A DNA stretch of 64,000 bases, from contig NZ_CP059856.1 in assembly GCF_009193325.2 (NCBI RefSeq), forward strand, positions 124,001-188,000, read 5' to 3'. The stretch comes from Bacteroides zhangwenhongii. Its GTDB lineage: Bacteria > Bacteroidota > Bacteroidia > Bacteroidales > Bacteroidaceae. Below, one piece after another: positions 45,023 through 61,252 of this stretch. The notes below the pieces were generated by a model, which saw only the letters and a program-made list of their open reading frames with translations, searched no databases and had not been told where the DNA came from. How positions within the stretch are numbered: the first letter of the stretch is position 1; each line of letters begins with the position of its first letter. The translations under genes were made by a program, and so were the position numbers.

Positions 45023-45095
45023 GATTCGCTAGCTCAGCAGGTAGAGCACAACACTTTTAATGTTGGGGTCCTGGGTTCGAGCCCCAGGCGGATCA
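45023..45095 (+). tRNA. tRNA-Lys (anticodon TTT)
   Basis: A full cloverleaf folds: acceptor arms GATTCGC and GCGGATC, D arm GCTCAGCAGGTAGAGC, anticodon arm CAACA-CTTTTAA-TGTTG with anticodon TTT, and T arm CTGGGTTCGAGCCCCAG. The discriminator is A and CCA is not encoded. The mobile region begins about 240 nt after it, as is common for tRNA targets. Confidence 0.97.
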
Positions 45096-45119
45096 CTTTT
45101 TGAAACAGCAAAAATGCGT

Positions 45120-45337: not shown

Positions 45338-46453
45338 ATGAGTATGAAAAGAAATTATTTTTCGGTCCTTTTCTACATCAAGAAGGCCAAATTATTGAAA
45401 AACGGAGAGGCTCCTATCTGCCTGAGAATAACCGTAAATGGGAAACGTGCGGAAATTCAAATCAAGCGCAGTGTGGAAATTGGCAAGTGGAATGCCCAAA
45501 GGGAATGTGCGATTGGTAAGGACAGAAAGTATCTGGAACTTAACCACTATCTGGAAACAGTACGTACCCGCGTACTTCGTATTCATCGTGAACTGGAACA
45601 GGATGATAAACCTATCACAGCTGAAATTCTGAAGAAGTTATTCTATGGTGAAAAACAAACTCCCAAGATGTTATTGGAGGTTTTCAAAGAACATAACGCA
45701 AAGTATCGTGAGCTAATAGGGAAAGATGTGGTGAAAGCTACGGTGCTCCGTTATGAGAGAACTGTACGATATCTTGAGGAGTTCTTGAAAAAAGAATATC
45801 GATTAAACGATATACCTCTGTGCAATATCAATCGTGAGTTCATATCCAATTTTGAATTCTTTATCAAAACTGAAAAAAGTTGTGCGCAGAATACAACTGT
45901 TAAATATTTAAAGAACCTAAAGAAAATTATCACATTGGCACTTACAAATAAATGGATGACGGATAATCCATTCTTCGGAGTCAGGTTCAAACAAACCCAA
46001 TCTAACCGAGAATTTCTCAGCGAGGAAGAATTACATATTATTATGGAAAAAGAATTTAATATACCTCGTTTAGAAATAGTACGCGACATTTTTGTTTTTT
46101 GTTGCCTGTCTGGATTAGCATTTACGGATATAAAACATTTACGTCCTGGGCATATTACAAAAGATCCTAATGGGGAAGATTGGATTCGAAAGCCTCGTGA
46201 AAAAACAAATAACATGTGTCACATACCGTTGCTTGACATTCCCGCATTAATAGCTGAAAAATACAAGAACAATCCGATCTGTGTACAAAAGAACATGGTG
46301 CTTCCTGTACCTTGTAATCAACGGATGAACAGTTATTTGAAAGAAATTGCCGATCTGTGTGGAATTACTAAAAAGTTGACAACCCATGTGGCAAGACATG
46401 GCAAATTTTCTTTCTTGCTAAAATTCAGGCACTTGCAAAATATTTCAGCTTAA
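45338..46453 (+). pseudogene. Tyrosine integrase, truncated in the catalytic domain
   Basis: This 371-residue frame has the Bacteroides integrase N-terminal and core-binding domains (NYFSVLFYIKKAK start), then the catalytic domain with SGLAFTDIKHL and THVARH near residue 352. After THVARH the sequence diverges to GKFSFLL and stops, losing the LGH and the catalytic Tyr, so it should not recombine. The normal family length is about 400-420. The Arg I position holds Ala. It lies next to tRNA-Lys, so it is probably the relic of a tRNA-targeting element. Confidence 0.88.
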
Positions 46454-46597
46454 TAGGTAACGATTTAGAAACCAGCGAAATTCTGTATTTCACTTTGTTT
46501 TGCAGTAATTCAAAAGAACGCTTTTCCTAAATGCAAAGATAATATTATTTTTTGAATAATAAACCTTTGCAGATAGTCAAATTCAATAAATTATCGG

Positions 46598-47925
46598 CTA
46601 TGGTTGCCGAAATTTATATTTAAGTCCATACTCTTCAAGTTTATTATAAAGTGTTGTCCTGCTTATTCCAAGCAGTTCAGTTCTGCGGCAACCTTCCGGT
46701 TGCCGTCAGCCTGCCTCAAAGCACGTATAATCCGCTCTTTATCTTCCTCATCGTTACGCAGGGAAAAGCCAACAACAGAATTTGTTTCAGCTATCCTAAG
46801 CTCCAAATGCTCTTTCGTGACAACGCCTTCCTGCGCCTGTAATACGGCTCCCATGATTTTCTGCCGAAGCTCGCGCACGTTGCCCGGCCATGTGTGGGTC
46901 AGCAACGCTTTACGAGCTTCCGAACTGAAACCACTCACGTTACATTCCAACTCTTTGTTGGCTATCTCACGGAAGAACTCCGCAAGCGGCATAATGTCCT
47001 CCTTACAGTCACGCAAGGACGGCACGGTTATCACAAAATCACGCAGGCGATATAGCAAATCTTGCCGGAAACGCTTTTCATTCACCGCTACTTCCAAATC
47101 TTCATTAGTGGCGGCGATGATACGGACATTGAAACTTCTGTCCGATTTGTCACCGACAGGACGATACCGCCTTTCCTGTATGGCGCGGAGCAGCATCTGT
47201 TGGGTTTCCAATGCGAGGTTGCCCACCTCGTCAAGAAACAGCGTGCCGCCTTCCGCTTCATGGAAATACCCTTTCTTGGTACTGTCCGCACCCGTGAACG
47301 CACCTTTGACGTGTCCGAAGAAAGCCGACGGCGCAAGTTCTTTGGTGAGTGAGCCACAGTCCACCGCCACGAATGGTTTGCCAGCCCGTTTGCTTTTTTC
47401 GTGCAGGTGGTGGGCGATATGTTCCTTGCCCGTGCCGTTCTCCCCGAATATCATCACGCTCATATCGGTAGTGGCTACCAGCTTTATCCTGTGCATGATT
47501 TTCTGAAAGGCGGAACCTTCACGGGCGAACACGGGTATTCGATTTAGTCCTGCCTGACGCTCCTTCTGTATGGTACGAATAAGTGGGACGAGTTTATCCT
47601 CTATCAGTTTTTTAGGTATATAGTCTATCGAACCGAGTTTCATACTTTCAACGGCGGTATGCACTTCGGCGTAGTCGGTCATGATGATGAACGGTTGCAT
47701 CTTACCTTCCTTGCGCATCCAGCGCAACAGTTCTATTCCGTCACCGTCCGGCAGACGCAGATCCGAAACGACTATATCATCATCTGCCGCTTGTTGCAGT
47801 TGTTTCTTCGCTGTTGACAGGTGGTAAGCCTTCACGGTATCGTATCCTTCCCGTGCCAGCATATTGCAGATATACTCGCAATACACTATGTTGTCTTCCA
47901 CAACGATTATTCTTGTCTTATCCAT
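46598..47925 (-). pseudogene. rteB: RteB-like sigma-54 response regulator with C-terminal frameshift
   Basis: The 420-residue open frame (stop at 46663) has a receiver domain (Asp in VVSDLRLPDGDG), an AAA+ sigma-54 activator domain with GENGTGKE and GAFTGA, and the start of a Fis-type HTH. CTnDOT RteB has this layout and drives transfer genes. A tandem 5-bp CAGTT duplication at 46673-46682 shifts the frame; without it, 440 residues would be read to a stop at 46598, including the recognition helix SRTTLYNKL. The regulator here likely cannot bind its DNA. It overlaps rteA by 8 nt. Confidence 0.88.
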
Positions 47926-50224
47926 TTTCGTATTTTCTCCTTTCTTCTTTTGCCTGTTGAACTATCTCCGCACCTCTATCAAGCACAGAATTAACCGCTT
48001 GCTGAATGGTGTTATCATCTGGCGTTACCCCATTGTGAAGCACTCTATAAAGCACCCTTAACGGTTGGTCGGCGCGAAGTATCTCCCACGAACTGCGCAG
48101 ATGGTGTGTCAGGGCATCCAGTTTTTGCAGGTATTTCTCTTTTGCTGCATCACGAACCGCCTGCATTTCTTTCTCGGTTTCCGTTATCAACTTTTCCAAC
48201 ATGACGGCTTCATTGCCGTAGGATAATAAAGCAGAAAAATCAATCTTTTCATTGGGAGTTGTTTTTATGGCGCATCTGTCGGAAACCTCCATCAGTTCCG
48301 ATATGGAAAACGGCTTGAACAGGCATCCGGCAAAGCCACGTTCCAAAAGTTCCTCCGCATCGCAACTGCCCGAAGCGGTTGCCACAACCACGGGGATTGT
48401 CTGAGAATTGCCCACGTTGGACGAGCGCAGAAGTTCCAGCAGCTCGAAACCGTTTATATGGGGCATATTCAGATCCGTCAGCAACAAGTTGTATTCTTTC
48501 CGGCGTATCATTTCCATCAGTTCCGCCGTATCCGTGCAGGTATCGCAGTGTATCCCTTCTTGGGCATACATCTCTTTCAGCATCAGGAGTAGCACCTCAT
48601 CATTGTCAATGACTACAACATTTAGGTTTCTGTCCTTTCGCCGATAAATCTGTATCTCTTTTTCCGGCACTTCATCGACTTTCTGCATGGGTATCTCCAT
48701 CGTGAAACGGCTTCCTTTACCCTTCTCACTTTCCAAACGGATTTTACCACTAAGCATCGTCACTATATTCTTCACAATGGCAAGCCCAAGTCCGAAGCCG
48801 TCCTTTGCGGCGGCATTTGAAAGGCGTTCAAACGCACCGAATACCCGTTGCTGTTCATCTTCGGTCATGCCTGTGCCCGTATCCTCAACGACAAGGGTCA
48901 AAATTCCGTTATTGTAGTCTGTTGTAAGTGATACACCACCTTCCTCCGTGAACTTGACGGCATTTGACAGCAGGTTGTTCCCGATTTGGATTATTCGCTC
49001 TTTGTCGGTCAATACCACGGTATCGCTTACGTTATTTACTGTTAGCGACAGCCCTTTGTTCATGGCTATTGGCATAAACTCCGTTTCAAGGGTCTGTGCG
49101 ATTGCTAATATCCGGCAAGGTAGCATTTTGGGCTGTTCCTTGCCGTTGTCCAAACGGAAGAAGTCCAGCAGTGTGTTGAGCATCTCCCGCATACGGTTGG
49201 AAGACTGTTGTATGCTTTGAAAAAAATGCACATTGTTACCCTTGCTACACTCTTTCCGCAACAATTCGGTATAGCCTGTTATTGCAGTCAGTGGTGTACG
49301 CAGTTCGTGGGTGATGGTATGCACCGCCTTCTTTCTTGAAGCAATCAGAGCCTCGTTCCGTTGTACGGATTGTTCCAGTTGCCCTATCAAATCCGTTGTC
49401 TTGCGCTTGTATCGTTTGATGCTCTTTGCATCACGATATATGATGATGTAGGAAATTAACAACAGCAAAAGAACAAATCCCATCAGACCGCCTACTTGCA
49501 TGAATGACTTTTCACGCATAGCGATTATTTCGTCTTCCCGCCCTTGCAGGTCGGCTTGTACCTTATTTTCTATTTGACAGATTAGCCCCTTCAACTGCCT
49601 GTTAAGATCTGCATTGCGGGCAGCAAGACTGTCGGCTTGTTCCGACAATCGACGGCTTTGCTCTTTTTGTTCGCTGACTATGCTTCTATTGGGTGAACGG
49701 AGCGTAGTCGTTGTTGTCGTTGGTTTCGTTTCCTCTTTTTTGCCGAAGATGCCCAAGAAACCTTTACGCTTGGGCTTCTTGGGCTGTTCCTGCACAATAT
49801 TCTGCACAATAACCGGTGATTGACTGGCAATCTTTTTGTTGATAGATTGTTGTTCATCCATTAACCTGACAATTTGGAACATCTGTCGTTCCTTATCTTC
49901 CAAAAGACTGCGCACGCTGTCAACACGCTCAATCGAATGAATTTTATTGAACAGGCACAATGTGCTGTCCAATGCAATGCGTTGGGCATGGTAATTCGCT
50001 AAATCCGCTTCGTCCCAATCCAATACAGTTTCTCCTGACAAAGAAAGCTCTATCAGTCGGATATGAATACGGTTTACTTCTTTCCGCAATTCATCAATTC
50101 GCTGATTGTTAGCTTCCAGCGATTCTACTTCATTCCACTCAGAATACCACACACAGGAAATTGTACATATCAATACGAAAATTATGATATAACCCAGTAT
50201 GATTTTTATGTGCAACTTATCCAT
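47918..50224 (-). CDS. rteA: RteA-like hybrid sensor histidine kinase
   Basis: The 768-residue protein has a first membrane helix (residues about 7-27), a periplasmic coiled-coil region to about 240, a second helix near 250-270, then a kinase core with HELRTPLTA (H-box), a HATPase with GFGLGLAIV, a receiver domain (LLLTDLNMPHINGF) and a C-terminal HPt-like region with HHLRSSW. This is the phosphorelay layout of CTnDOT RteA, which senses a signal and passes phosphate to RteB. Its partner here is frameshifted. Confidence 0.92.
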   Translation of the reverse strand: MDKLHIKIILGYIIIFVLICTISCVWYSEWNEVESLEANNQRIDELRKEVNRIHIRLIELSLSGETVLDWDEADLANYHAQRIALDSTLCLFNKIHSIERVDSVRSLLEDKERQMFQIVRLMDEQQSINKKIASQSPVIVQNIVQEQPKKPKRKGFLGIFGKKEETKPTTTTTTLRSPNRSIVSEQKEQSRRLSEQADSLAARNADLNRQLKGLICQIENKVQADLQGREDEIIAMREKSFMQVGGLMGFVLLLLLISYIIIYRDAKSIKRYKRKTTDLIGQLEQSVQRNEALIASRKKAVHTITHELRTPLTAITGYTELLRKECSKGNNVHFFQSIQQSSNRMREMLNTLLDFFRLDNGKEQPKMLPCRILAIAQTLETEFMPIAMNKGLSLTVNNVSDTVVLTDKERIIQIGNNLLSNAVKFTEEGGVSLTTDYNNGILTLVVEDTGTGMTEDEQQRVFGAFERLSNAAAKDGFGLGLAIVKNIVTMLSGKIRLESEKGKGSRFTMEIPMQKVDEVPEKEIQIYRRKDRNLNVVVIDNDEVLLLMLKEMYAQEGIHCDTCTDTAELMEMIRRKEYNLLLTDLNMPHINGFELLELLRSSNVGNSQTIPVVVATASGSCDAEELLERGFAGCLFKPFSISELMEVSDRCAIKTTPNEKIDFSALLSYGNEAVMLEKLITETEKEMQAVRDAAKEKYLQKLDALTHHLRSSWEILRADQPLRVLYRVLHNGVTPDDNTIQQAVNSVLDRGAEIVQQAKEERRKYENG

Positions 50225-50350
50225 TTATATACATTTCAATATGCAAACCGTTGATTAGTTATAATAAAAATTGCCCAATGGAAAAACCGAATTGGGCAAT
50301 TTTGCTATTCAAAGCCTGTTACAACTTTGATGGTATATGTACTCGTTACA

Positions 50351-50857
50351 TCAGAGAGTTTCAAGAAGTGCTTTATACGCCTTGCTTCCCTCTGCAATAC
50401 GTTCTTCTGCATCCGGCATCATTGTCCCATAAATGGCAAATGGACGAAGATAAGTCATGCCGGAATACATGGCGGTTACTTGGTAAGGACGCAAAATTTC
50501 GTCAATGGTAAACCCTTCCGCACCACCTGCATGATATTCTTCTGCTGCGACTCCGGTTGTTGTAGCCACAAGGAGTTTCTTGCCTTTCATACCGGGATTT
50601 TCCATAAATCCGAGCATGAATGTGTCAAGCCAGTCTTTGAGGCGACCGGGGGCACTTCCCCACCAAAATGGGAATTGGAACACGAGCACATCGGCGTTTT
50701 TTACATCGTCGATGTAATTTTCTACTTCAAGGGGAGTATTATAGATATCTACCACCTTGACATTTTTCAACTCTTTGACTGCTTCAAGCATGGCTGCACA
50801 TGCTTTCGACCCTCCAATATTAGGATGTGCCGATAAAAGTAAAATGTTGCTACTCAT
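50351..50857 (-). CDS. Flavodoxin-fold NAD(P)H oxidoreductase
   Basis: The 168-residue protein has the flavodoxin-like/MdaB-KefF fold: LLLSAHPNIGGSKACAAM at the N-terminus and QFPFWWGSAPGRLKDWLD in the FMN/NAD-binding region. Such enzymes reduce quinones or electrophiles. Its place directly downstream of the UvrA2-like gene suggests a resistance role, but the substrate is unknown. Confidence 0.88.
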   Translation of the reverse strand: MSSNILLLSAHPNIGGSKACAAMLEAVKELKNVKVVDIYNTPLEVENYIDDVKNADVLVFQFPFWWGSAPGRLKDWLDTFMLGFMENPGMKGKKLLVATTTGVAAEEYHAGGAEGFTIDEILRPYQVTAMYSGMTYLRPFAIYGTMMPDAEERIAEGSKAYKALLETL

Positions 50858-50964
50858 AACGCTGTATATTTTTGTTTTAGACTTTATTTTATCAAACGCA
50901 AAATTAATACACGCAAATGAGATAGCGGGAAAACAAAAAAGGACTAAGATGTCACTTTTCGGGA

Positions 50965-53490
50965 CTATTTCCTTTTAGATAGTTCAAAATTCAAATATTT
51001 TCCAGTAATGCTTTCAGGGTTTGCCATTATTTGTTGAGGTGTTCCTGCTGCTACTATGCGACCACCATATTCTCCGCCTCCGGGTCCCATATCGATTACA
51101 TAATCAGCATTGGCTATGATATCAAGATCATGTTCGATAACCATCACTGTCGCTCCGTTTCTCACCAATCTGTCAAACACCATCAAAAGAACACGAATGT
51201 CGGATGGATGTAAACCGATGGACGGCTCATCAAATACAAAAAGAGCGTCATTTTGCGGCTTATCCATTTCAGACGCCAATTTCAATCGTTGGGCTTCTCC
51301 ACCGGACAGAGCCGGAGTCGATTCACCAAGCGTCAGATAACCCAATCCCAAATTATTAAGCAGATTCAGTTTCTCATATATTTTTTTATTGCCAGCAAAC
51401 AGTTTTAATGCTTGCTCGACGGTTAATCCCATAATTTCGGAAAGAGATACACCTTGTTCGTTTGTTTTCTTGTCAGGATGGAATTTTAAGGCTTCAACCG
51501 ATTTGTCGTATCTTGAACCTTTGCATTCTGGACAGACCATATCAACATCCGGCAGGAATTGCATATCCATTGAAATCTGCCCTGTGCCATCACAGGTTTT
51601 ACATCTTAATATTCCAGTGTTGTATGAGAAATCCGCAGCTTTGTATCCCTTTTCCTTTGATTGGGGGAGAGATGCAAAAATCTTACGTAAATCGTCAAGA
51701 ATGTTCGAATATGTTGCAACCGTGGATCTGACATTTATCCCGATAGGCGAAGCATCAATCAAATGGATTTTCTTGATGGTCTTGTTTGTTACTGTTTTGA
51801 TATAGGCAGGCAACGGTCTTCCCGATATTTGCGCTTCTAAGGCTGGTATCAGTTCCTCTAAAACTAAGGTTGTCTTGCCGGAACCTGACACTCCCGTAAC
51901 AGCAATTAAACGACCACAAGGGATATCCACATCAATGGGTTGCACGGTATGTAGCCTGTCTGTCTTTATGTTTATATAGCCATTGTCGAAAATATGACCT
52001 TCCGGTATTGAATCTCTGATTATCGTTTGTTCTGTTCCGGCAAGGAATCGTCCAATTATTGAAGATCGGTTATTCTTAATTGCGTCCACATTCCCCAAGG
52101 CAACTATATTGCCTCCGTTATAACCGGCTCCGGGTCCCATTTCTATAAGGTAGTCCGCTGCACGGAGCACTTGTATGTCATGGTCTACAAATACAACAGA
52201 ATTTCCATCGCTTATAAGGTCTTGCATCACTCCGAGCAGGCCTTCCACATTTGACGGGTGAAGTCCGATTGACGGCTCATCAAGAACATATAGCATACCG
52301 GTTGTCCGATTACGAACCGCCCTTGCCAATTGCATACGTTGCCGTTCACCAGTGGATAAAGTCGTTGCACTGCGGTCAAGACTAAGATAACCTATTCCAA
52401 GTTCTATGAGGCGTTGTGCAGAATTGGTAAGTTCTTTTACAAGGCTATCTGCCATAACTCTCATACTTTCCGGAATTTTATTCGGGATTTGCGTTATCCA
52501 TGCCAATAGTTCATCCAATGTCATTGATGAAACTTCCGCAATATTCTTACCGCCAAGCAAAGATGACAAAGCCTTGGCGTTATAACGAGAACCTTGGCAT
52601 TCGGGACAACAGCACAAATGCAGGTATTTGTTTATTCGTTCAAGACCTTTTTCCGTTTCGGCTTTCTTTAACGCTTCTTCAACTGCGCGGCGCGCATTGC
52701 GGTATGTGGTATTAAGTTCAAACAACTTACCGTTTTTTGATGGAATAAGTATCAGTTTCTGAATTTCAGCACCATTATATACTATATCTTTTTCCGTATC
52801 ACTTAAATCCTTGAACGGAATATCAGCCCGTACTCCAAATTCTTCGGCGACTTTTGACATCCATGAAATACCGAACATCTTCCACGGCTCGACTGCTCCT
52901 TGATTGATTGTCAGAGAAGTGTCCGGGACAAGTGCATCGTTATCGATTTCCCGGACTATTCCGGTTCCATTGCATTTCTCACACGCGCCTTCACCGTTAA
53001 ATGAAAATGATTCTGCACCGGGGGCGTCAAAATCACAACCGCATATAGGGCAATGTAATTTGTTCCCAATCGCTACATCTATGGTAGGATCAAGCAAATG
53101 TCCGTTTGGGCAACAATGGCTTCCCAAACGGGAAAACATAAGTCGTAGATGATTAAGTAGCTCTGTCGCTGTACCGAATGTACTTCTTATGCTTGGGATG
53201 CCGGGGCGTTGTTGCAGCGCAACTGCCGCCGGGATATGTTCGATATTGTCAACAACTGCTTTCCCTGCTTGAGCGATTCTTCTCCGGGTAAATGTAGACA
53301 GGGATTCAAGATAACGTCTTGACCCCTCGGCATACAGCACACCGAGAGCCAAAGACGATTTTCCTGAACCGGACACCCCCGCAATGCCAACGAGTTGCCC
53401 AAGTGGGATGGACGCATCAATATTTTTTAGATTATGCACCCGTGCGCCACGAATTTCGATTTTATCGGGTACACCATTTTTTAGTTTCAT
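50965..53490 (-). CDS. UvrA-like excinuclease ATPase (UvrA2 class)
   Basis: The 841-residue protein has two ABC ATPase halves: GVSGSGKSSLALG with LSTGERQRMQLA, and GVSGSGKTTLVLEE with LSGGEAQRLKLA. Zinc-finger Cys clusters (CEKCNGTG, CPECQGSR, CKTCDGTG, CPECKGSR) are all present. It is about 100 residues shorter than UvrA and lacks a clear UvrB-binding domain, as in the UvrA2/drug-resistance group. The first signature has Thr for Gly at its third position. It has its own -7 motif. Confidence 0.92.
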   Translation of the reverse strand: MKLKNGVPDKIEIRGARVHNLKNIDASIPLGQLVGIAGVSGSGKSSLALGVLYAEGSRRYLESLSTFTRRRIAQAGKAVVDNIEHIPAAVALQQRPGIPSIRSTFGTATELLNHLRLMFSRLGSHCCPNGHLLDPTIDVAIGNKLHCPICGCDFDAPGAESFSFNGEGACEKCNGTGIVREIDNDALVPDTSLTINQGAVEPWKMFGISWMSKVAEEFGVRADIPFKDLSDTEKDIVYNGAEIQKLILIPSKNGKLFELNTTYRNARRAVEEALKKAETEKGLERINKYLHLCCCPECQGSRYNAKALSSLLGGKNIAEVSSMTLDELLAWITQIPNKIPESMRVMADSLVKELTNSAQRLIELGIGYLSLDRSATTLSTGERQRMQLARAVRNRTTGMLYVLDEPSIGLHPSNVEGLLGVMQDLISDGNSVVFVDHDIQVLRAADYLIEMGPGAGYNGGNIVALGNVDAIKNNRSSIIGRFLAGTEQTIIRDSIPEGHIFDNGYINIKTDRLHTVQPIDVDIPCGRLIAVTGVSGSGKTTLVLEELIPALEAQISGRPLPAYIKTVTNKTIKKIHLIDASPIGINVRSTVATYSNILDDLRKIFASLPQSKEKGYKAADFSYNTGILRCKTCDGTGQISMDMQFLPDVDMVCPECKGSRYDKSVEALKFHPDKKTNEQGVSLSEIMGLTVEQALKLFAGNKKIYEKLNLLNNLGLGYLTLGESTPALSGGEAQRLKLASEMDKPQNDALFVFDEPSIGLHPSDIRVLLMVFDRLVRNGATVMVIEHDLDIIANADYVIDMGPGGGEYGGRIVAAGTPQQIMANPESITGKYLNFELSKRK

Positions 53491-53513
53491 AATATCCGCT
53501 TATAGTAAGTCTG

Positions 53514-53521
53514 CAAAGTTA
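53514..53521 (-). promoter_or_regulatory. -7 promoter motif for the UvrA2 operon
   Basis: Minus-strand TAACTTTG matches TAnnTTTG, 23 nt upstream of the UvrA2-like start. Confidence 0.6.
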
Positions 53522-53565
53522 GGTATTGATTGCGACTTAGCCTGATATAAAAGCGGATAGATATG

Positions 53566-54447
53566 TCAATTTTCGGGATTTGACACACTCTCTCGGAATT
53601 TTTGTGGTGTCATTCCTCCATTACGTGTAAAAAAACGATTGAAATAAGTGGCGGTACTGAAATGGAGTATATCGGCAATTTCTGCGGAAGACAGGTTTGT
53701 ATATGCCAACAACTTTCGCGCTTCTTCCATAATACGTTCCTGTATATACAATTTGGTGGTTGTCCCTAACGCATCTTTTACAATCTTATTCAGATAATTG
53801 GTTGTTACACATAATTTCCCTGCATAAAACTCGGTATTATGCTCTGAAATGAAATGTTCATTGACAAGCCTTATAAACTTCTCAACATGACGGCTGACAG
53901 GAATATTTACATACCCACCAAAACCGGATTTCGCATCTGCCCTCCCTATTAAGACAAGTAACGCATAGAGCATGGCACGCAGAAAATGCGTATCGGCATT
54001 TTCCCTCCTATTGATTTCACTTTTCGTGAGCAGAAGTAAATTCAAAACCTGTTCATACAATATCGCATCCATTTGAAGGTATGGAGAGGGACGGTCGGGA
54101 GTAAAAAACGGCATTTTTTCCAAGAAAAGGTGGTCAGAGAAAAACGACCGAAGAAATGCCTCTTCGAATAGCAAAACATATCCCTCCAATGTTTCATTAT
54201 CTGACAGCCAGTGCCATACTTCTCCCGGAACAGAACAAACAATCTGCCCCTTGCTTACTGTTGTAATATGATTGTTTACGGATAACTTGGCTTCTCCCTC
54301 GGTTATGAAAATAACCCGATAAAAATTATCTCGGTATATAGGTGTCTTCTTCAACCACGGACGGATAAAGGCAATGTCCACCAAATCCATCAGCAGTTCT
54401 TTGTGGTATTTCTTTCTATAAAATTTATATAATGGTATCTTCTTCAT
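53566..54447 (-). CDS. AraC family transcriptional regulator
   Basis: The 293-residue protein has an N-terminal cupin-like sensory region and a C-terminal AraC DNA-binding domain with LSSAEIADILHFSTATYFNR and FTRNGGMTPQKFRES. It lies just upstream of the UvrA2-oxidoreductase genes on the same strand and may control them. Its -7 motif is 4 nt from the first Met, so translation may begin at a leaderless start or at MDLVDIAF near 54390. Confidence 0.9.
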   Translation of the reverse strand: MKKIPLYKFYRKKYHKELLMDLVDIAFIRPWLKKTPIYRDNFYRVIFITEGEAKLSVNNHITTVSKGQIVCSVPGEVWHWLSDNETLEGYVLLFEEAFLRSFFSDHLFLEKMPFFTPDRPSPYLQMDAILYEQVLNLLLLTKSEINRRENADTHFLRAMLYALLVLIGRADAKSGFGGYVNIPVSRHVEKFIRLVNEHFISEHNTEFYAGKLCVTTNYLNKIVKDALGTTTKLYIQERIMEEARKLLAYTNLSSAEIADILHFSTATYFNRFFTRNGGMTPQKFRESVSNPEN

Positions 54448-54451
54448 ATTG

Positions 54452-54459
54452 CAAAGTTA
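54452..54459 (-). promoter_or_regulatory. -7 promoter motif for the AraC gene
   Basis: Minus-strand TAACTTTG matches TAnnTTTG. It lies immediately upstream of the ATG at 54447, implying little or no leader. Confidence 0.5.
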
Positions 54460-54553
54460 GCTCTTTTCTTCATAAAGAAGATTAGATTAAATCCTTTATT
54501 TCTTGATTTATTGAATAGTACATAAAATATTGGGACAATATAGTGATATAGAA

Positions 54554-54583
54554 TGAGGACTGCCAATAAATAGACAGTCCTCA
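54554..54583. repeat. Hairpin between the mobilization remnant and AraC
   Basis: Arms 54554-54562 (TGAGGACTG) and 54575-54583 (CAGTCCTCA) are exactly complementary with a 12-nt loop. It may be a terminator of the mob operon or a remnant of it. Confidence 0.45.
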
Positions 54584-54589
54584 CAACCC

Positions 54590-54721
54590 TCATATTTTCA
54601 TTCCTTTCGGGCGGTTTTCATCTTTGGAATATAGCCCCGGACGACCGATTACAACATGGTCGGCAATGAAATTGCCCGTGGAACTTCGTTCATTTGCCGG
54701 ACTGCGTATCAGAGGGACATC
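54590..54721 (-). other. Unassigned C-terminal coding remnant
   Basis: An open frame of 43 codons with no start reads GNFIADHVVIGRPGLYSKDE and stops at 54590-54592. It follows directly after the mobA stop, in another frame. It looks like the end of a gene whose front was deleted, possibly from the mobilization module. The parent gene is not recognised. Confidence 0.35.
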
Positions 54722-54724
54722 TCA

Positions 54725-55159
54725 CTATGCCATAGAATCACCCCGTCTTTGTTGCCATTTAGCCTCCATCTCCCTTGAAAGCTCGACAATCTCCCGGCTC
54801 AGCTTCACAAGGTCGATGGTACACTTCTCCAGCTTGTAGAGCAATGCCATCGCCTTCTTCTCCGAGAAGTGTATGCGCAGCTCCTTGACAACCTAATTAT
54901 AGTTCGTGCCTATACCACGAAACTGGGCGTGGAAGTCCGACAGCTTGGTGTAGTAGTCCAGCATCGTCTTGTCCACCTTCAGCACCTTGAACTTCTGCCC
55001 GAAGAAATGCGACTTGAGAAAGACAGCTTTCGCGTACACGTTCGATTCCTCGTACATCGTCAGGAACCTGTTCCATTCCACATCGTCGAAGCGCACCATC
55101 ACGCAGTGCGTCTTCGGGTTCAACTTGGGATTTCTCCCGTACTTGCTCTTCTTTTTCAT
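54725..55159 (-). pseudogene. mobA: MobA-like relaxosome accessory protein with an internal TAG
   Basis: The first 88 residues start MKKKSKYGRNPKLNPKTHC and read to RGIGTNYN, where TAG (54893-54895) interrupts the frame. Reading continues in the same frame to a stop at 54725 with VVKELRIHFSEKK and further helices, for a family-like length of 144 residues. In related proteins the position after the Asn is Gln, so a CAG to TAG change is the simplest cause. The protein should recruit a relaxase at oriT; here no relaxase follows. Confidence 0.85.
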
Positions 55160-55222
55160 GCTTCTTATTTTTTCAATTTTATGGCTTGTCCATTGTTTAA
55201 TCTTTGATTAATGAACCCCGAA

Positions 55223-55422
55223 ATTATCCGACTGCGGAGGATAATTCTGCCCACGGCGGTGAAGGTGTTTTCAGTTACTTAGAATTATTCGGGTAACTGA
55301 AAATATATCTTGCTGTGTCTTTGAGGACACAAAAATCCTCCGTCTGTCGGATTTGTTTCCGAGTGCAGTCATTCACTTGGAGAATCGGATGAACCGATGA
55401 AGTGCATCCACCGGTTCATCCG
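55223..55422. other. Candidate oriT: three hairpins upstream of mobA
   Basis: Three inverted repeats lie in the gap between mobA and the DUF3408 gene: ATTATCC/GGATAAT (55223-55229, 55239-55245), TTTTCAGTTAC/GTAACTGAAAA (55268-55278, 55293-55303) and CGGATGAACCG/CGGTTCATCCG (55386-55396, 55412-55422). Mobile elements of Bacteroides carry oriT next to mobA, so this is a plausible oriT. No nick site is identified. Confidence 0.45.
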
Positions 55423-55439
55423 GGTTCTCCGAAATCTTG

Positions 55440-55985
55440 TCAGAGCTTGCGCCACTGCCCGAAGTCCTCACGGTAGCTGTCGAGGTGCAGACGGACGAGG
55501 TTTTCAATCAGCCCCGATGCGCTCATGCCGCGCTTTCCGAAGTTGCCGACAATCCTGTCCAGCTCGTCACGCACCTCCTCGCTGACGAACACGGGCTTGC
55601 GGTTGACAAGCTTCGGGACTTTCAGGTAGGTGGCGCGGTACTCCTCCAACGAAAGCCTGCGCTGTTTGCCGCTGATACGTCTGGCGACAGTCTGCCCCGT
55701 GGGAGCATCGACATCCTCAACAGAGGTTTTATCTGCCGTTTTTCCGTCCGGTGCATCCCGTTTTTCAGGCTCGTTAGGTCGGTCTGCATCGGACACCGTA
55801 TCCTGCATTGCAGCTGTGTCTGTCCCATCCAGCGGAGGGAAGAGTGCAGCCTCTACCGTGGTTGCTTCCTGTTTCTGTGCGGAAGCCTTTGCCTCCTGCT
55901 CACGCCATTTCATTTCAGGCAGGTAGTCCTCTATCCTGAAATTCTTGAATGCTTCGTCATTCTCGTAGTTTCTTTTCTTTGCCAT
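55440..55985 (-). CDS. DUF3408 domain protein
   Basis: The 181-residue protein has a charged, low-complexity N-terminal half and a C-terminal DUF3408-type region with VNRKPVFVSEEVRDELDRIV and SASGLIENLVRLHLDSY. DUF3408 (TraB/TraC-like) proteins are found in Bacteroides conjugative elements. No ParA gene is adjacent, unlike in complete tra regions. It is divergent from the Xis-like genes. Confidence 0.85.
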   Translation of the reverse strand: MAKKRNYENDEAFKNFRIEDYLPEMKWREQEAKASAQKQEATTVEAALFPPLDGTDTAAMQDTVSDADRPNEPEKRDAPDGKTADKTSVEDVDAPTGQTVARRISGKQRRLSLEEYRATYLKVPKLVNRKPVFVSEEVRDELDRIVGNFGKRGMSASGLIENLVRLHLDSYREDFGQWRKL

Positions 55986-56364
55986 TTTGTCAATTTTTTA
56001 AAGTTAATACTTGGTGGTCTCATGCGCATGGGTGACCGTTTGTCGGGAGCAAAGTAAGATACTCCGGTGCAGTCGGTCAAGCACTTGGGTTCGCTTAGGC
56101 AATTTTGTGTGGTTCTGCTTTATGGTGATTGACAAAGCAGTGAGGACTTCACCGTTTTGCCAGATATATATGACTGAAAGGGGAAAGGTTCAATTACGGG
56201 CAATTTTGAATTAAGCCCTTATCTGGACTGTAGCTTCCTTATTAAATATGGAAATTAAGGACTAATGGCTGAACGGATTGGGCAATTGGTGGGTTATGCC
56301 TGTGCCAACCTCTACCACCCTGTGCCACTTGCTGCCAGACAGGAATAAAACCATTGCCGGATGC

Positions 56365-56510
56365 CGGATTATGTATTTCTTTGCGGGAGAAGGAATGATA
56401 GCCGCCAAAGGAAAGTCGGCATCCCGGACAATGACTGCCGTATCAGCGCAACACGCTACCACTTTCGGAAAACCCATTGTCAAGTAACGGATTATATATT
56501 CCTTTGCGGC
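56365..56510 (+). repeat. Duplicated promoter-like segment with a 123-bp period
   Basis: A 23-nt segment (56365-56387) recurs at 56488-56510 with 20 of 23 matches. Both contain a T-rich promoter-like stretch ending TTTGCGG. One copy precedes a 30-codon ORF and the other precedes the first Xis-like gene. The region 55986-56543 holds otherwise no clear gene. Confidence 0.5.
56395..56487 (+). CDS. Possible 30-codon leader peptide
   Basis: ATG 56395 has a fair Shine-Dalgarno-like GGAGAAGG just before it and the frame stops at 56485-56487. The peptide begins MIAAKGKSASRT. It lies between the two copies of the duplicated promoter-like segment and upstream of the Xis-like genes, so it could be a leader ORF. 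It is a weak call. Confidence 0.25.
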   Translation: MIAAKGKSASRTMTAVSAQHATTFGKPIVK

Positions 56511-56543
56511 AAAAGAAACAGTAACAACTAAAAGAAAGACAAT

Positions 56544-56855
56544 ATGGAAATCGTATCAATCGAAAGAAAGACCTTTGAGGCGATGGTCGCCAAGTTCGAC
56601 CGCTTCGTCAGCCGGATGGATGCCATCTGCCATCGGCACGGTGAAAAGAAAATGAGTGAGTGGATGGACAATCAGGACGTGTGCCGGATGCTCAACATCA
56701 GCCCACGAACATTGCAGACACTTCGGGACAACGGCACGTTGGCTTATTCACAGATAAATCACAAGACCTATTACCGTCCCGAAGATGTGCAACGCATCGT
56801 CCCCGTCGTGGAGGACAGGCGGAAAGAAGCAAGGTTCAAAGGCAGAACTATATAA
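56544..56855 (+). CDS. Xis2c-like helix-turn-helix protein
   Basis: The 103-residue protein has an N-terminal helix and a MerR/excisionase-type HTH: WMDNQDVCRMLNISPRTLQ and KTYYRPEDVQRI. The arrangement of two such genes near the integrases matches xis2c and xis2d of CTnDOT, small basic proteins required for excision. It lies 47 nt ahead of the second HTH gene. Confidence 0.85.
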   Translation: MEIVSIERKTFEAMVAKFDRFVSRMDAICHRHGEKKMSEWMDNQDVCRMLNISPRTLQTLRDNGTLAYSQINHKTYYRPEDVQRIVPVVEDRRKEARFKGRTI

Positions 56856-56902
56856 ACCAAGTATAGTACATAACTGATAATACCCACTAAAATCCAAAAC
56901 GT

Positions 56903-57208
56903 ATGAATGAATTGATAAACAAGGACAACGAGTGGATAATCCACTTCATGGGTAGCCTTGACCGTCTTCTGGTCAACGTAGAGCATCTGACCGCCAACTA
57001 CCGCCCGACACTGAACGGGGAGCGTTTCTTCACCGACAAGGAGGTATCAGCTCGGTTGAAGGTGAGCCGCCGGACGCTTCAGGACTACCGTAACGAGGGA
57101 CGTATTGCCTATATCCAATTGGGCGGCAAAATCCTCTACCGTGAATCCGACATCGAAAGGATGCTGGCTGACGGCTACCGTTCCGCATACCGACTGACGG
57201 CAACCTGA
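56903..57208 (+). CDS. Xis2d-like helix-turn-helix protein
   Basis: The 101-residue protein has the same layout as its neighbour, with FFTDKEVSARLKVSRRTLQDY and GKILYRESDIERML. It likely is a DNA-bending excisionase partner. A strong hairpin follows. Confidence 0.87.
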   Translation: MNELINKDNEWIIHFMGSLDRLLVNVEHLTANYRPTLNGERFFTDKEVSARLKVSRRTLQDYRNEGRIAYIQLGGKILYRESDIERMLADGYRSAYRLTAT

Positions 57209-57277
57209 TTTTCTTGAAGGAGCGCAGTTTGCCGTCTGCCCATACTTGCGGCAGCAATGGTACAACAAAAAGAAAAA

Positions 57278-57330
57278 GGAACGGTTTACGGATGAAGCAT
57301 CAATGTTTAGCTTCGTCTGTAAGCCGTTCC
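57278..57330 (+). terminator. Terminator after the Xis-like genes
   Basis: Arms 57278-57298 and 57310-57330 pair at 18 of 21 positions with G-U allowed at mismatches, followed by a T-rich run. It lies 69 nt past the stop of the second Xis-like gene. Confidence 0.65.
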
Positions 57331-57385
57331 TCTGTTTCTTCTGATTTCCCGTCAGTCGCTTGTTTCCGTTGCCGGATGCCTTTCA

Positions 57386-57504
57386 AGCGTGTGGCTGGCA
57401 ATGGCAAGGTTTTCGGGCTGAATACGCTCAACCCCGTTTGAGGAAGATTCCGCCCGAAACGGCTCTGCCGCCTGACCTTGCCAATGCCGTCAAAGCCACA
57501 CGCT
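57386..57504. repeat. Large three-part inverted repeat
   Basis: Three pairs of arms nest in order: 57386-57396 with 57494-57504 (11/11), 57397-57409 with 57476-57488 (12/13) and 57411-57418 with 57452-57459 (8/8). The structure spans 119 nt between the Xis-like genes and the RhuM-like gene, in a 342-nt stretch with no clear gene. It could fold in RNA or act as a protein-binding site. Confidence 0.65.
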
Positions 57505-57550
57505 ACTTTTGCATCCGTGCATCGGGAACAGGTGGCTGACGGGATGAACC

Positions 57551-57925
57551 TCAGTTATACCATAGGTTGCCGCCCTTGCCACAAGAGAAGAACAATGTTA
57601 TTGGGCTTCCTTTCTTGGTGGCGCAGATTTCATTCATCACAAACTGCCGGAATCGGATACTCTCTCTGCTGCATATCCTGAAAGCAACGGCTATGACCAT
57701 TTCAAGGTTGTAAACATCATAGCTGATGCCGTCAGTTTGCTTGATATACTTCATCGTATCAGTTTCGTTCAACTCCTTATTTTTGTAGATTGCCCGTATT
57801 ACCTTGCGGATGTCGCAGGAGAACACCCCGAACAGGTCGGCTATCTCGAACTTGGTCATCCACACGGTAGTAGTAGAGATTGTAATTGTCCCCATTTCAC
57901 TGATTGTTATTATTCCTCTGTTCAT
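57551..57925 (-). CDS. RhuM-like protein N-terminal domain
   Basis: The 124-residue protein resembles the N-terminal part of RhuM/virulence proteins, with MTKFEIADLFGV, YDVYNLEMVIAVAFRI and SIRFRQFVMNEI. Full RhuM proteins run over 300 residues, so this is a short version or a remnant. The family is found on mobile elements. It sits 25 nt from the second integrase on the same strand. Confidence 0.7.
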   Translation of the reverse strand: MNRGIITISEMGTITISTTTVWMTKFEIADLFGVFSCDIRKVIRAIYKNKELNETDTMKYIKQTDGISYDVYNLEMVIAVAFRICSRESIRFRQFVMNEICATKKGSPITLFFSCGKGGNLWYN

Positions 57926-57950
57926 AATTCCCTTATCTTATGATGATTAT

Positions 57951-59165
57951 TTATGATTTTTTCTTTTCGCCAGCCGATATTTTCTTTCTTCGCTCCATCA
58001 GTTTGTCCATGTCTTTGGAGATTTTATCATCAGTTATCCGTGCATATCCCTGTGTCGTCCTGATATTGGAGTGTCCCATCATCTTGGCGATACTCTCAAT
58101 CGGAATGTCCGCAGAAATCAGGAATGTTCCGAAGCTGTGCCGACTTTGATGATAGGTCAAGTTTTCCTCTTTTCCTATGGTTACTCCCAACTCGTGAACC
58201 TCAAACCATAGGGCATCACGGTTGGGAAGAGGAAACACGGACTTCTCATCATCAGTTGTGTTATACAACGACAATATCTGCTCCGCTATGGGATGCAAGG
58301 GGATGAACGCCTCCACCTTTGTCTTCTTGCGGTTGATGCGAATATACCGTCTGCCCTCCGCATTTGTCCCGATATGATGGGGATGAAGAAGTTTGATGTC
58401 CACATACGCCAGTCCCGTCAGGCTCGAAAAGATGAATGCTCGTCTTGCCAGTTCCATCCGCTTGTCATACATCGGCGTGGAAAGTATCTTCCTGAACTCC
58501 TCGCGACTGATGTACCTATGCCTTGCCTCCGGCTTTGTCTCATACTCCAAGTCCTCGCAGGGATTTACACGGATAATCTCCTTATCGACCGCAAGGTACA
58601 ACAGCCTGTTCAGCCAACGCAGGCAATGGTTGGTCTGTGACACCCCGAAGTTCTTGCATTTCTTCAAGTGGGCTTTGTAAGACTTGCCGAAATCCTCCGT
58701 CACTTCTTCAAGAGGAATATCCTTTTTCCCGATTGACACTATAAAGTCCGTCAGGTACTTTTGGTAGTACATTGAAGCCCGATAGGAGGATGTGGAATCA
58801 ATCTCTTCGGAATGCCTCTTCAACCGCTCGCGTTCCCATTCACCCATTTGCAATAAAGTGGTCGGATGGATGTTGTTCAGGGAGATATGGTTCTTCAACA
58901 TCTCGGCACTGACCACGCCTTGCGATTTAAGTATCTCGGCATAGGCTTCTTCCGTCAGACGCAGGTATTCCCGCAAGCGGTTGTTCTCCCTGATGGCCTT
59001 TATCTCATTCTTCTTGCTGTTCCAATCTTCGGGGCGGCAATAGATGCCTGTGCTTATGGCAGTCTGCTTGCCGTCAATGGTTATACGGCAGAGTACGGCG
59101 GTCGTGCCGTCAGCCCTCACTTTGCTGCGGTTGATGTAGGGTAATAATGAAAATGTGCTTCGCAT
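57951..59165 (-). CDS. Tyrosine-type site-specific recombinase (second integrase)
   Basis: The 404-residue protein has the integrase layout: an arm-binding N-terminus, a core-binding domain and a catalytic domain with TGLAYVDI, HQSRHSFGT, MMGHSN and the Tyr in TTQGYARI. His, Arg and Tyr are present but the first Arg position is Ala. It lies 13 nt from the first integrase and is probably in one transcript with it. Confidence 0.93.
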   Translation of the reverse strand: MRSTFSLLPYINRSKVRADGTTAVLCRITIDGKQTAISTGIYCRPEDWNSKKNEIKAIRENNRLREYLRLTEEAYAEILKSQGVVSAEMLKNHISLNNIHPTTLLQMGEWERERLKRHSEEIDSTSSYRASMYYQKYLTDFIVSIGKKDIPLEEVTEDFGKSYKAHLKKCKNFGVSQTNHCLRWLNRLLYLAVDKEIIRVNPCEDLEYETKPEARHRYISREEFRKILSTPMYDKRMELARRAFIFSSLTGLAYVDIKLLHPHHIGTNAEGRRYIRINRKKTKVEAFIPLHPIAEQILSLYNTTDDEKSVFPLPNRDALWFEVHELGVTIGKEENLTYHQSRHSFGTFLISADIPIESIAKMMGHSNIRTTQGYARITDDKISKDMDKLMERRKKISAGEKKKS

Positions 59166-59178
59166 ATCGTTGTTGGAT

Positions 59179-60408
59179 TTATAGGGTTAATTTGAAATCC
59201 TGGGTCGCCTCTATGAACTTGTCCATGTCCTCGAACAGTTTTTGGGGACTGACACGGGCATATACCTGAGTGGTGGAAATGTCGGAGTGCCCCAGCATCC
59301 GGCTGATGGTCTCAATCGGCACACCTGCTTCGAGCGTGATTAACGAGGCGAAACTGTGCCTTGCCTGATGATAGCACAAGTCGTCTTTAATGCCAGCCAA
59401 TGCCGCCAACGCCTTCATGTGCCTTCGGAGGTTTGGCCAATGCAATAAAGGGAACAGTGTGTCCCTGTCCTCACTGTGATACTTCTCAATCAGCGCAATC
59501 GCTTCGGGCAACAGTTTCACGCTGGCACGGAGTTCGTTTTTCTTTCTTCGATACTTCAGCCACAAAGCCCCGCCCTCATCAGTATACAGATTCTCATGGG
59601 TAATAGAGACAACATCCGCATAACAGACCCCGGTGTAGCACCCGAAGAGAAACATATCCCTTGCCAGCATGTGGGATTTGCGGTAAGCAGGTATTTCCAC
59701 ATCACGGATTCTCTCAAACGATTTACGGCTCAATGCCCGCGGTGTCGTTTCAGTCTTCTTCGGCAAGGTAAAATGCCGGAAGTGGATTCTGTCGGCATAC
59801 CCCTCCTTATAAGCCAGACGGCATATCTTCTTCAGGATGGCAAGATGATGGCGGACGGTATCTATCGCATAGCCCTTGTTTTCCATAACGAATGCCTGAT
59901 AGTCGTGGATGAACTGTTCCGTCAGTTGCCCGAATGCCAAATCCTTGACCTTGTACTGATGCTTGATGAACTCTCCGAGGGTCAGACGCATATAGTGATA
60001 GCCGGGATAAGTCCCTTTCGCGCGGTCTATGCCGATACGGGCTTTGAGGTCATCACAGACAACATCCGTCATTCGCATGAGGGTCATCTGTGTTTCCATA
60101 CTACCTTGAAAATGATTTTTCACATCGGTGGCATCAAAATCTACCTTACGGCTCACAAGGCTGTCGAAGGCGTTGTTCACCGCCAACAGCAGTTTCTCAA
60201 TCTTGGCATTGGTTTCCACCGCCTCCTTGCTCTTGCCGTTCAGACGGCTTTCACGGGGATTCCACAGTTCGGGAGTGCAGGACAGCTTGCAACTGAACTG
60301 CGCCATCGTGCGGTTCACGGTGATACGTCCCATGATGGGAGCCTTGCCCGACTTGTCCAGTCCGCTCTTTTTGAGGTAGAGCAGCACCTTGAATTTTTCT
60401 ACTTTCAT
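59179..60408 (-). CDS. Tyrosine-type site-specific recombinase (first integrase)
   Basis: The protein has 409 residues from ATG 60408, chosen because the frame's earlier ATG at 60510 lies upstream of the -7 motif at 60427-60434. The catalytic domain shows TGVCYADV, HQARHSFASL, MLGHSD and Tyr in TTQVYARV. The first Arg position is Cys. With its tandem partner it should catalyse integration and excision. Confidence 0.93.
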   Translation of the reverse strand: MKVEKFKVLLYLKKSGLDKSGKAPIMGRITVNRTMAQFSCKLSCTPELWNPRESRLNGKSKEAVETNAKIEKLLLAVNNAFDSLVSRKVDFDATDVKNHFQGSMETQMTLMRMTDVVCDDLKARIGIDRAKGTYPGYHYMRLTLGEFIKHQYKVKDLAFGQLTEQFIHDYQAFVMENKGYAIDTVRHHLAILKKICRLAYKEGYADRIHFRHFTLPKKTETTPRALSRKSFERIRDVEIPAYRKSHMLARDMFLFGCYTGVCYADVVSITHENLYTDEGGALWLKYRRKKNELRASVKLLPEAIALIEKYHSEDRDTLFPLLHWPNLRRHMKALAALAGIKDDLCYHQARHSFASLITLEAGVPIETISRMLGHSDISTTQVYARVSPQKLFEDMDKFIEATQDFKLTL

Positions 60409-60426
60409 ACGCTTATATTTTAAGTG

Positions 60427-60434
60427 CAAATTTA
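60427..60434 (-). promoter_or_regulatory. -7 promoter motif for the tandem integrases
   Basis: Minus-strand TAAATTTG matches TAnnTTTG, 18 nt upstream of ATG 60408. It also resembles part of the GTAnnTTTGC sequence known as the CTnDOT crossover core, though here it is most likely a promoter. Confidence 0.6.
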
Positions 60435-60518
60435 CTTGCCATATAAGCGTCTCTTGACACGCAAAACACTGTGTATTAACGCAAACAAAACGGTGAGGAT
60501 TTCTTTTCATCGCTTGCC

Positions 60519-60567
60519 GTTACCTGTTCCCGTTTAGGTAACTGCCCGGCTAACGGTTTGGTAACTG
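60519..60567. repeat. Repeated GGTAACTG sites near the integrase promoter
   Basis: GGTAACTG occurs at 60537-60544 and 60560-60567, 23 bp apart, and a related GTTACCTG at 60519-60526 in the other orientation. They may be arm-type binding sites for an integrase at the element end. The evidence is spacing only. Confidence 0.45.
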
Positions 60568-60661
60568 AACAACCTCAATATTCCGTTTTCGTTTGCATTT
60601 TCACAACTTGGCAAAATATTGAAATACCGCTTATTTCTAACGGTTTACGTTTAATCTATAC

Positions 60662-61252
60662 CTATCCACAGTCGCTTGCTTTGGCTATTCTGTTGCATGT
60701 TGCCCGGCATACATGTGTATCTAAAGGAACAATCAAATCTCTGCGATCAAAACTTTCCCAAATCGACCTCCGAATCCCGACGAATCATCCAACGCAAAAA
60801 CATATTCAGTTTCTTTTGAGGACTTTTGGCAGAAACTTCAAGAAATGCACATAACTTTTCCATTGGTATTCCGGGATATAACATCAAAGCTTCCTCCAGA
60901 CTTTCAAACTGTGTATAAGCTATATATAATGCCGAAAGTATCCATAAAAATCAGCATACGACAACATCCGATAAAAGCTATTGGTCGCTCCCGAAGGAAA
61001 ATCCTTCTCCCACTGGCGGGACAATACATATTGATAAGGTGAATCTCCCATTAATCTATGCAGTTCGTCCGCCTTCTTCAATATCTGTTTGCGATTGCCA
61101 AAACTCATAATTGCCGTCAACAGACCACTGATTTCAATATCCTGCTTCAACGTATATCGATGAGGGAACTGCACCGGATCACTTATAATAAAGTCTGCAC
61201 GATGATAAATCTCCGCACACATCAAAAGTTTATTCTTTATATCTTCAGTCAT
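60662..61252 (-). pseudogene. DUF2400/TIGR02757 family gene, broken
   Basis: The front 110 residues (MTEDIKNKLLMCAEIYHRAD start, ends FRHYI) match TIGR02757. An extra TA in a TATATATA run then shifts the frame; reading resumes as AYTQFESLEEAL, and an extra A at a GGAAAG shifts it again to SFDRRDLIVPLDTHVCRA. The C-terminal part is missing and the mobile region begins there. The family is a putative nucleotide-excision or DNA-glycosylase-related protein of unclear role; here it is non-functional. Confidence 0.85.

What the first reader, a model, noticed from the sequence alone, without database searches (positions are those of the whole stretch)
46663..46690. A 5-bp duplication removes the recognition helix of the RteB-like regulator
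The CAGTT unit at 46673-46677 is repeated at 46678-46682. Removing one copy restores a 440-residue protein whose end carries ISRTTLYNKL, the second helix of a Fis-type HTH; with the duplication the protein stops early. Sigma-54 activators need this helix to bind DNA. Tandem repeats of this kind can revert, so the change may also be a phase-switch. The rest of the receiver and AAA+ domains is intact, which argues that the lesion is recent.
Basis: partly seen in the sequence, partly recalled or inferred. Interest (0 to 1): 0.7.

Follow-up and report, generated by a model that had tools for sequence, protein, structure and literature searches.

The report
Recently broken regulator on mobile element
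A short tandem duplication has cut the DNA-binding end off a gene-switch protein (RteB) carried by a partly decayed mobile element in a Bacteroides bacterium; it looks like ordinary recent gene loss rather than an on-off switch.

Summary
In detail: the CAGTT pentamer is in tandem at 46673-46682 and rteB (46663-47925, minus) stops at 420 residues inside its Fis-type HTH. Among 46 distinct rteB-homologue sequences, only the window's is short and only it has the tandem pentamer; an exact pattern finds the short form in 1 of 157 genomes of the genus, its own. Pfam HTH_8 covers model 6-27 of 42 here, 6-42 in a relative and in a 440-aa paralogue of the same genome. The lesion is recent: dN/dS is unchanged and the cut-off tail is 51/51 nt identical to the nearest relative. 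A phase switch is not supported: two copies, chance-level repeat, no relative with it. rteB is the last gene of a 14.3-kb integrative element whose MobC-like gene also carries a premature stop, so element decay is the best explanation. Assembly error is unlikely but untested. In passing: ends of this element family abut tyrosine integrase genes cut at their HxxRH active-site codons (15 of 20 distinct left flanks; 6 of 6 right ends examined), which is more interesting than the finding itself.

The parts
46663..47925 (-). rteB, 420-aa ORF: receiver (res. 6-116), sigma-54 AAA+ (137-299), lid (305-382), first part of Fis-type HTH (395-416), then out of frame
46673..46682 (.). tandem pentamer CAGTT x2
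46598..46671 (-). cut-off C-terminal piece of rteB, open and conserved in its own frame
   Evidence: other frame printed; 46621-46671 compared
47918..50224 (-). rteA, 768-aa hybrid histidine kinase, open throughout; overlaps rteB by 8 bp
46392..46560 (.). conserved left end of the integrative element, abutting the integrase gene
45338..46453 (+). tyrosine integrase gene (beside tRNA-Lys 45023-45096) interrupted after ...THVARH at about 46399
50351..50857 (-). cargo: flavodoxin-fold oxidoreductase
50965..53490 (-). cargo: UvrA-like ABC protein
53566..54447 (-). cargo: AraC-family regulator
54893..55159 (-). MobC-like gene with a premature stop after 88 residues (Pfam MobC_2, model 6-92 of 140)
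55440..55985 (-). DUF3408 protein (element backbone)
56544..57208 (+). two HTH_17 (excisionase-like) proteins, 56544-56855 and 56903-57208
57551..57925 (-). small protein with a sub-threshold match to RhuM (backbone, also in L060)
57951..60510 (-). two tandem tyrosine integrases (404 aa and 443 aa)
60696..60712 (.). right end of the element; beyond it a DUF2400 pseudogene on the minus strand (matches at 60744-60842 and 60914-61180)

Best explanation
A recent 5-bp tandem duplication, probably from replication slippage, frameshifted rteB just before the recognition helix of its Fis-type HTH. Shown: the duplication, the 420-aa ORF, the partial HTH, longer relatives, an open partner kinase gene rteA, and a full-length rteA-rteB pair elsewhere in the genome. 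Inferred: the short RteB may still be phosphorylated and engage sigma-54 but can no longer bind its own upstream sites, so the gene is a null or near-null. It was tolerated because the element is already decaying (premature stop in its MobC-like gene) and because a paralogous RteB (82% identical) remains.
For: Only 1 of 46 distinct homologue sequences is short; short form in 1 of 157 genus genomes, its own. HTH_8: 17.6 bits, model 6-27 (cut-off 22), against 53.1 and 45.4 bits, model 6-42, in L010 and own paralogue L002. The paralogue is a 440-aa ORF next to a rteA homologue. dN/dS averages 0.083 in 41 window pairs against 0.081 (sd 0.013) in the 714 relative pairs with dS over 0.3, and 51/51 nt of the tail match L010: no decay is visible yet on either side of the lesion. 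The MobC-like frame has a stop after residue 88 where L060 has none. Sigma-54 is encoded in the genome.
Against: No functional data. The two integrases, the HTH proteins and rteA are open, so decay is partial. One genome per species is held, so sister strains are unseen. No relaxase was found among 12 element ORFs scanned, but L060, with a full-length RteB and MobC, shows no ORF that I recognised as a relaxase either (not profile-scanned), so its absence is not a lesion by itself.
Confidence: 0.8

Rival explanations
1. HTH-less RteB still works: as a sigma-54 activator acting from solution, or as a dominant-negative partner that mixes into oligomers with the full-length paralogue.
For: Receiver, AAA+ and lid domains are whole; a paralogue 82% identical is present; sigma-54 is encoded. 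HTH-less sigma-54 activators exist in other bacteria (recalled, no call).
Against: None of 45 other distinct homologue sequences has this form; the change is too recent to show selection for the short form.
Confidence: 0.1
2. Assembly or sequencing error at the repeat.
For: The rest of rteB and the cut-off tail show normal conservation, and reads were not available.
Against: The genome is in 2 contigs at 99.95% completeness; a clean duplication of a five-base mixed unit is not a homopolymer error.
Confidence: 0.06
3. Phase switch: the tandem pentamer toggles RteB between short and long forms.
For: Perfect tandem repeats can change copy number by slippage (established knowledge).
Against: Only about two copies; tandem pentamers occur at chance frequency (77 seen, 70 +/- 10 simulated); no other homologue of 45 has the repeat.
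Confidence: 0.04

Closest known systems
RteB of CTnDOT/CTnERL (Bacteroides conjugative transposons)
   Same: Receiver plus sigma-54 AAA+ response regulator directly downstream of the kinase gene rteA
   Different: The window copy has lost the end of its HTH; no tetQ upstream of rteA and no rteC between rteB and the element end; it sits at the end of a 14.3-kb element (tetQ-rteA-rteB-rteC order from passages of PMC1976400).
Two-integrase (Tyr duo) mobilizable transposons such as MTnPi1-3 of Prevotella intermedia
   Same: Two tandem tyrosine integrases on a small element
   Different: Their listed target sites (TTAC or TTGC, N5, AA type; table passage of PMC5704250) are not the HxxRH-codon site seen here; sequence relation not tested
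CTnPi2-a of Prevotella intermedia, inserted in an integrase gene (passage of PMC4755523)
   Same: A mobile element sitting inside an integrase gene
   Different: One case mentioned there; here many different integrase genes are cut at the same codons

Membership tests
RteB-type sigma-54 response regulator | Receiver and sigma-54 activator domains | tested here: met
   PF00072 70.8 bits, PF00158 213.2 bits
RteB-type sigma-54 response regulator | Complete C-terminal Fis-type HTH | tested here: not met
   PF02954 17.6 bits, model 6-27/42, cut-off 22
RteB-type sigma-54 response regulator | Partner kinase gene rteA directly upstream | tested here: met
   rteA 47918-50224, homologous to the gene next to rteB in relatives
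RteB-type sigma-54 response regulator | tetQ-rteA-rteB-rteC order of CTnDOT | tested here: not met
   Upstream of rteA is a flavodoxin-fold gene; the element ends about 270 bp after rteB
Phase-variable simple-repeat locus | Several repeat units, copy number varying among relatives | tested here: not met
   About two units; 0 of 45 other distinct sequences carry the tandem
Phase-variable simple-repeat locus | Mixed repeat numbers in reads | not testable with these tools
   No reads held
Integrative and mobilizable element (IME) | Own integrase(s) and defined ends | tested here: met
   Tandem integrases; left end shared by many loci, right end by the 6 loci examined
Integrative and mobilizable element (IME) | Relaxase or mobilization genes | tested here: inconclusive
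   MobC-like gene present but with a premature stop; no relaxase among 12 element ORFs scanned; smaller ORFs not scanned
Integrative and mobilizable element (IME) | Mobilized by a helper element | not testable with these tools
   needs an experiment

The most novel reading that the evidence does not exclude
The rteB gene belongs to a Bacteroidales family of two-integrase elements that uses the codons of the catalytic HxxRH motif of other elements' tyrosine integrases as its attachment site, so that an insertion also splits a rival element's integrase. The rteB lesion is then one late step in the decay of one such copy.
Probability: 0.65. Interest if true: 0.6.

Novelty: new member of a known kind. 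Interest (0 to 1): 0.3.

Why it matters
The finding itself is ordinary: a freshly broken mobile-element regulator with a full-length paralogue in the same genome. It warns against reading a two-copy short repeat as a phase switch. The by-product matters more: an element family whose target is the active-site code of other integrases would explain why integrases in several Bacteroidales genomes are cut at one spot, would mean that one mobile element routinely disables others, and is directly testable.

Tried and rejected
Phase switch: rejected on copy number, chance frequency and lack of any homologue with the repeat. Footprint of an excised insertion sequence with a 5-bp target duplication: considered as the origin of the duplication, not tested. 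A conserved short RteB: rejected, 1 of 46 distinct sequences, 1 of 157 genus genomes. The order-wide pattern search holds few genomes of the genus and adds little. Sigma-54 promoter scan: 2 matches in the window, 1.89 expected by chance, neither in the element. Tandem Repeats Finder at score 30 did not list the pentamer. Plasmid records: 5 with a match, none at over 90% identity; their repeat state was not examined. Literature, 8 searches: RteB, rteB with frameshift (one unrelated paper), elements inside integrase genes. Of four papers only passages found by term were seen (PMC1976400, PMC4755523, PMC5704250, PMC10865816); one case of an element inside an integrase gene was found and, in those searches of an open-licence library, no report of an HxxRH-codon target family. 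PMC10865816 notes HTH_8 among domains often missing from incomplete relatives of its CTn214, which may mean that loss of this domain is common or may reflect its strict search cut-off. One search had an off-by-one error for minus-strand matches and was replaced.

Full report
Observation. The pentamer CAGTT stands in tandem at 46673-46682 and the minus-strand ORF 46663-47925 ends after 420 residues with ...AELNCLE. Two-copy pentamers are common by chance (77 in the window, 70 +/- 10 in 20 Markov simulations), so the repeat means little by itself.

Comparison. rteB homologues were collected from the same genome, from a search of 158 genomes of the genus (65 with a match, 30 loci returned) and from named contigs (best 80 of 101 confirmed). 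At E <= 1e-30, 128 loci plus the window gave 122 tblastn rows; one partial row (L006) was dropped, leaving 121 rows and 46 distinct sequences: 42 of 440 aa, one of 439, two of 448 (lengths counted from the alignment start), and the window's of 420. The tandem pentamer, sought in the last 200 nt, is in the window's gene only. The exact short-form pattern is in 1 of 157 genomes of the genus and 1 of 393 of the order (few of them from the genus), both times the window's own, and in 0 viral contigs. The genus is Bacteroides by inference: two contigs that one search places in the same genus (G143:C69 and G048:C76) have the lengths of named Bacteroides records L050 and L058.

What is lost. Pfam finds receiver, sigma-54 AAA+ and lid domains whole. 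HTH_8 matches model 6-27 of 42 at 17.6 bits, under its cut-off of 22; in the relative L010 and in the paralogue L002 it matches 6-42 at 53.1 and 45.4 bits. The last helix of the HTH, the DNA-reading one by knowledge of the Fis fold, is missing. No structure was predicted.

Age. Over codons 1-414, dN/dS averages 0.083 in 41 window pairs and 0.081 (sd 0.013) in the 714 pairs of relatives with dS over 0.3; the 51-nt tail stretch 46621-46671 is identical to L010. Neither part has decayed, so the lesion is recent. The stretch just before the lesion (codons 383-414) is also much closer to L010 (dS 0.09) than the receiver part (dS 1.12), a sign of mosaic ancestry.

Surroundings. rteA (768 aa) is open and overlaps rteB. 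The genome has a second rteA-rteB pair whose RteB is 82% identical and 440 aa long, and it encodes sigma-54. rteB is the last gene of an integrative element from about 46392 to 60712: rteB, rteA, flavodoxin-fold, UvrA-like and AraC-family cargo, MobC-like, DUF3408, two HTH_17 proteins, a small protein with a sub-threshold RhuM match, and two tandem tyrosine integrases. A Muribaculaceae contig (L060) holds the same backbone in the same order with a 440-aa RteB and an uninterrupted MobC-like ORF; the window's has a stop after 88 residues, and the integrase pair follows on the same contig. In another genome of the genus (L039) the only rteB match over 60 residues beside this element end covers residues 344-416, so loss of rteB at this place is not unique.

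Mechanism. Most likely a slippage event in a decaying element made rteB a null allele: the protein keeps its switch and motor but not its DNA address. In CTnDOT, RteB activates rteC, and rteA and rteB raise expression of some host genes (PMC1976400, abstract and passages); here no rteC lies between rteB and the element end. Shown: sequence state, conservation, partner, paralogue. Inferred: loss of DNA binding, and tolerance through the paralogue.

Element target. Of 48 blast hits to the left end among held loci (eight duplicate loci left out beforehand), 20 do not reach the end, 28 do, giving 20 distinct left flanks. In 15 of 20, the window included, a tyrosine integrase gene (tblastn E below 1e-7) is cut at its active-site motif: 12 read HxxRH, two HxxSH (L056, L057), one YxxRH (L039/L152). 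Five show no integrase (L044, L156, L157, L165, L171), though L156 still reads SHLARH at the junction. The loci come from rteB relatives and from the best 30 (46 of 157 genus genomes matched), so this is not a random sample. On the right side I examined 6 of the 8 loci returned, those with a close homologue of the 443-aa integrase; in 6 of 6 the sequence beyond the end translates, by eye, as an integrase C-terminal piece beginning at that motif, in one (L147) with a frame break. In the Muribaculaceae contig both halves lie about 14.1 kb apart on one contig; 25 of the 43 integrase ORFs hit were hit by both halves, and in several the N-half ends where the C-half begins. The window is an exception on the right: a DUF2400 pseudogene lies beyond the end, so its two flanks do not belong together and a rearrangement is likely.

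Noticed in passing
46392 and 60712; L038, L039, L046-L048, L056-L060, L123, L143-L148, L163, L168, L179: The element family abuts many different tyrosine integrase genes cut at the HxxRH active-site codons: 15 of 20 distinct left flanks and 6 of 6 right ends examined.
   Followed up: partly
54893-55159: MobC-like mobilization gene with a premature stop after 88 residues; the relative L060 has none there.
   Followed up: yes
60744-61180: DUF2400 pseudogene with stops beyond the element's right end; a stop-free copy lies elsewhere in the genome (C1:4997380-4998000). The two flanks of the element do not belong together, suggesting rearrangement.
   Followed up: partly
L039 10298-10516: In another genome of the genus only a remnant of rteB (residues 344-416) was found beside the same element end.
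   Followed up: no
61295-62587; L044 1-1239; L047 3585-4289: A MATE-family transporter gene lies near rteA-rteB in three places; in L044 and L047 it is just upstream of rteA.
   Followed up: no
46663-47925: rteB is mosaic: codons 383-414 are nearly identical to L010 (dS 0.09) while the receiver part is far more diverged (dS 1.12).
   Followed up: no
L117: A metagenome contig filed under Sporosarcina psychrophila carries a Bacteroidales-type rteB, probably a binning error.
   Followed up: no
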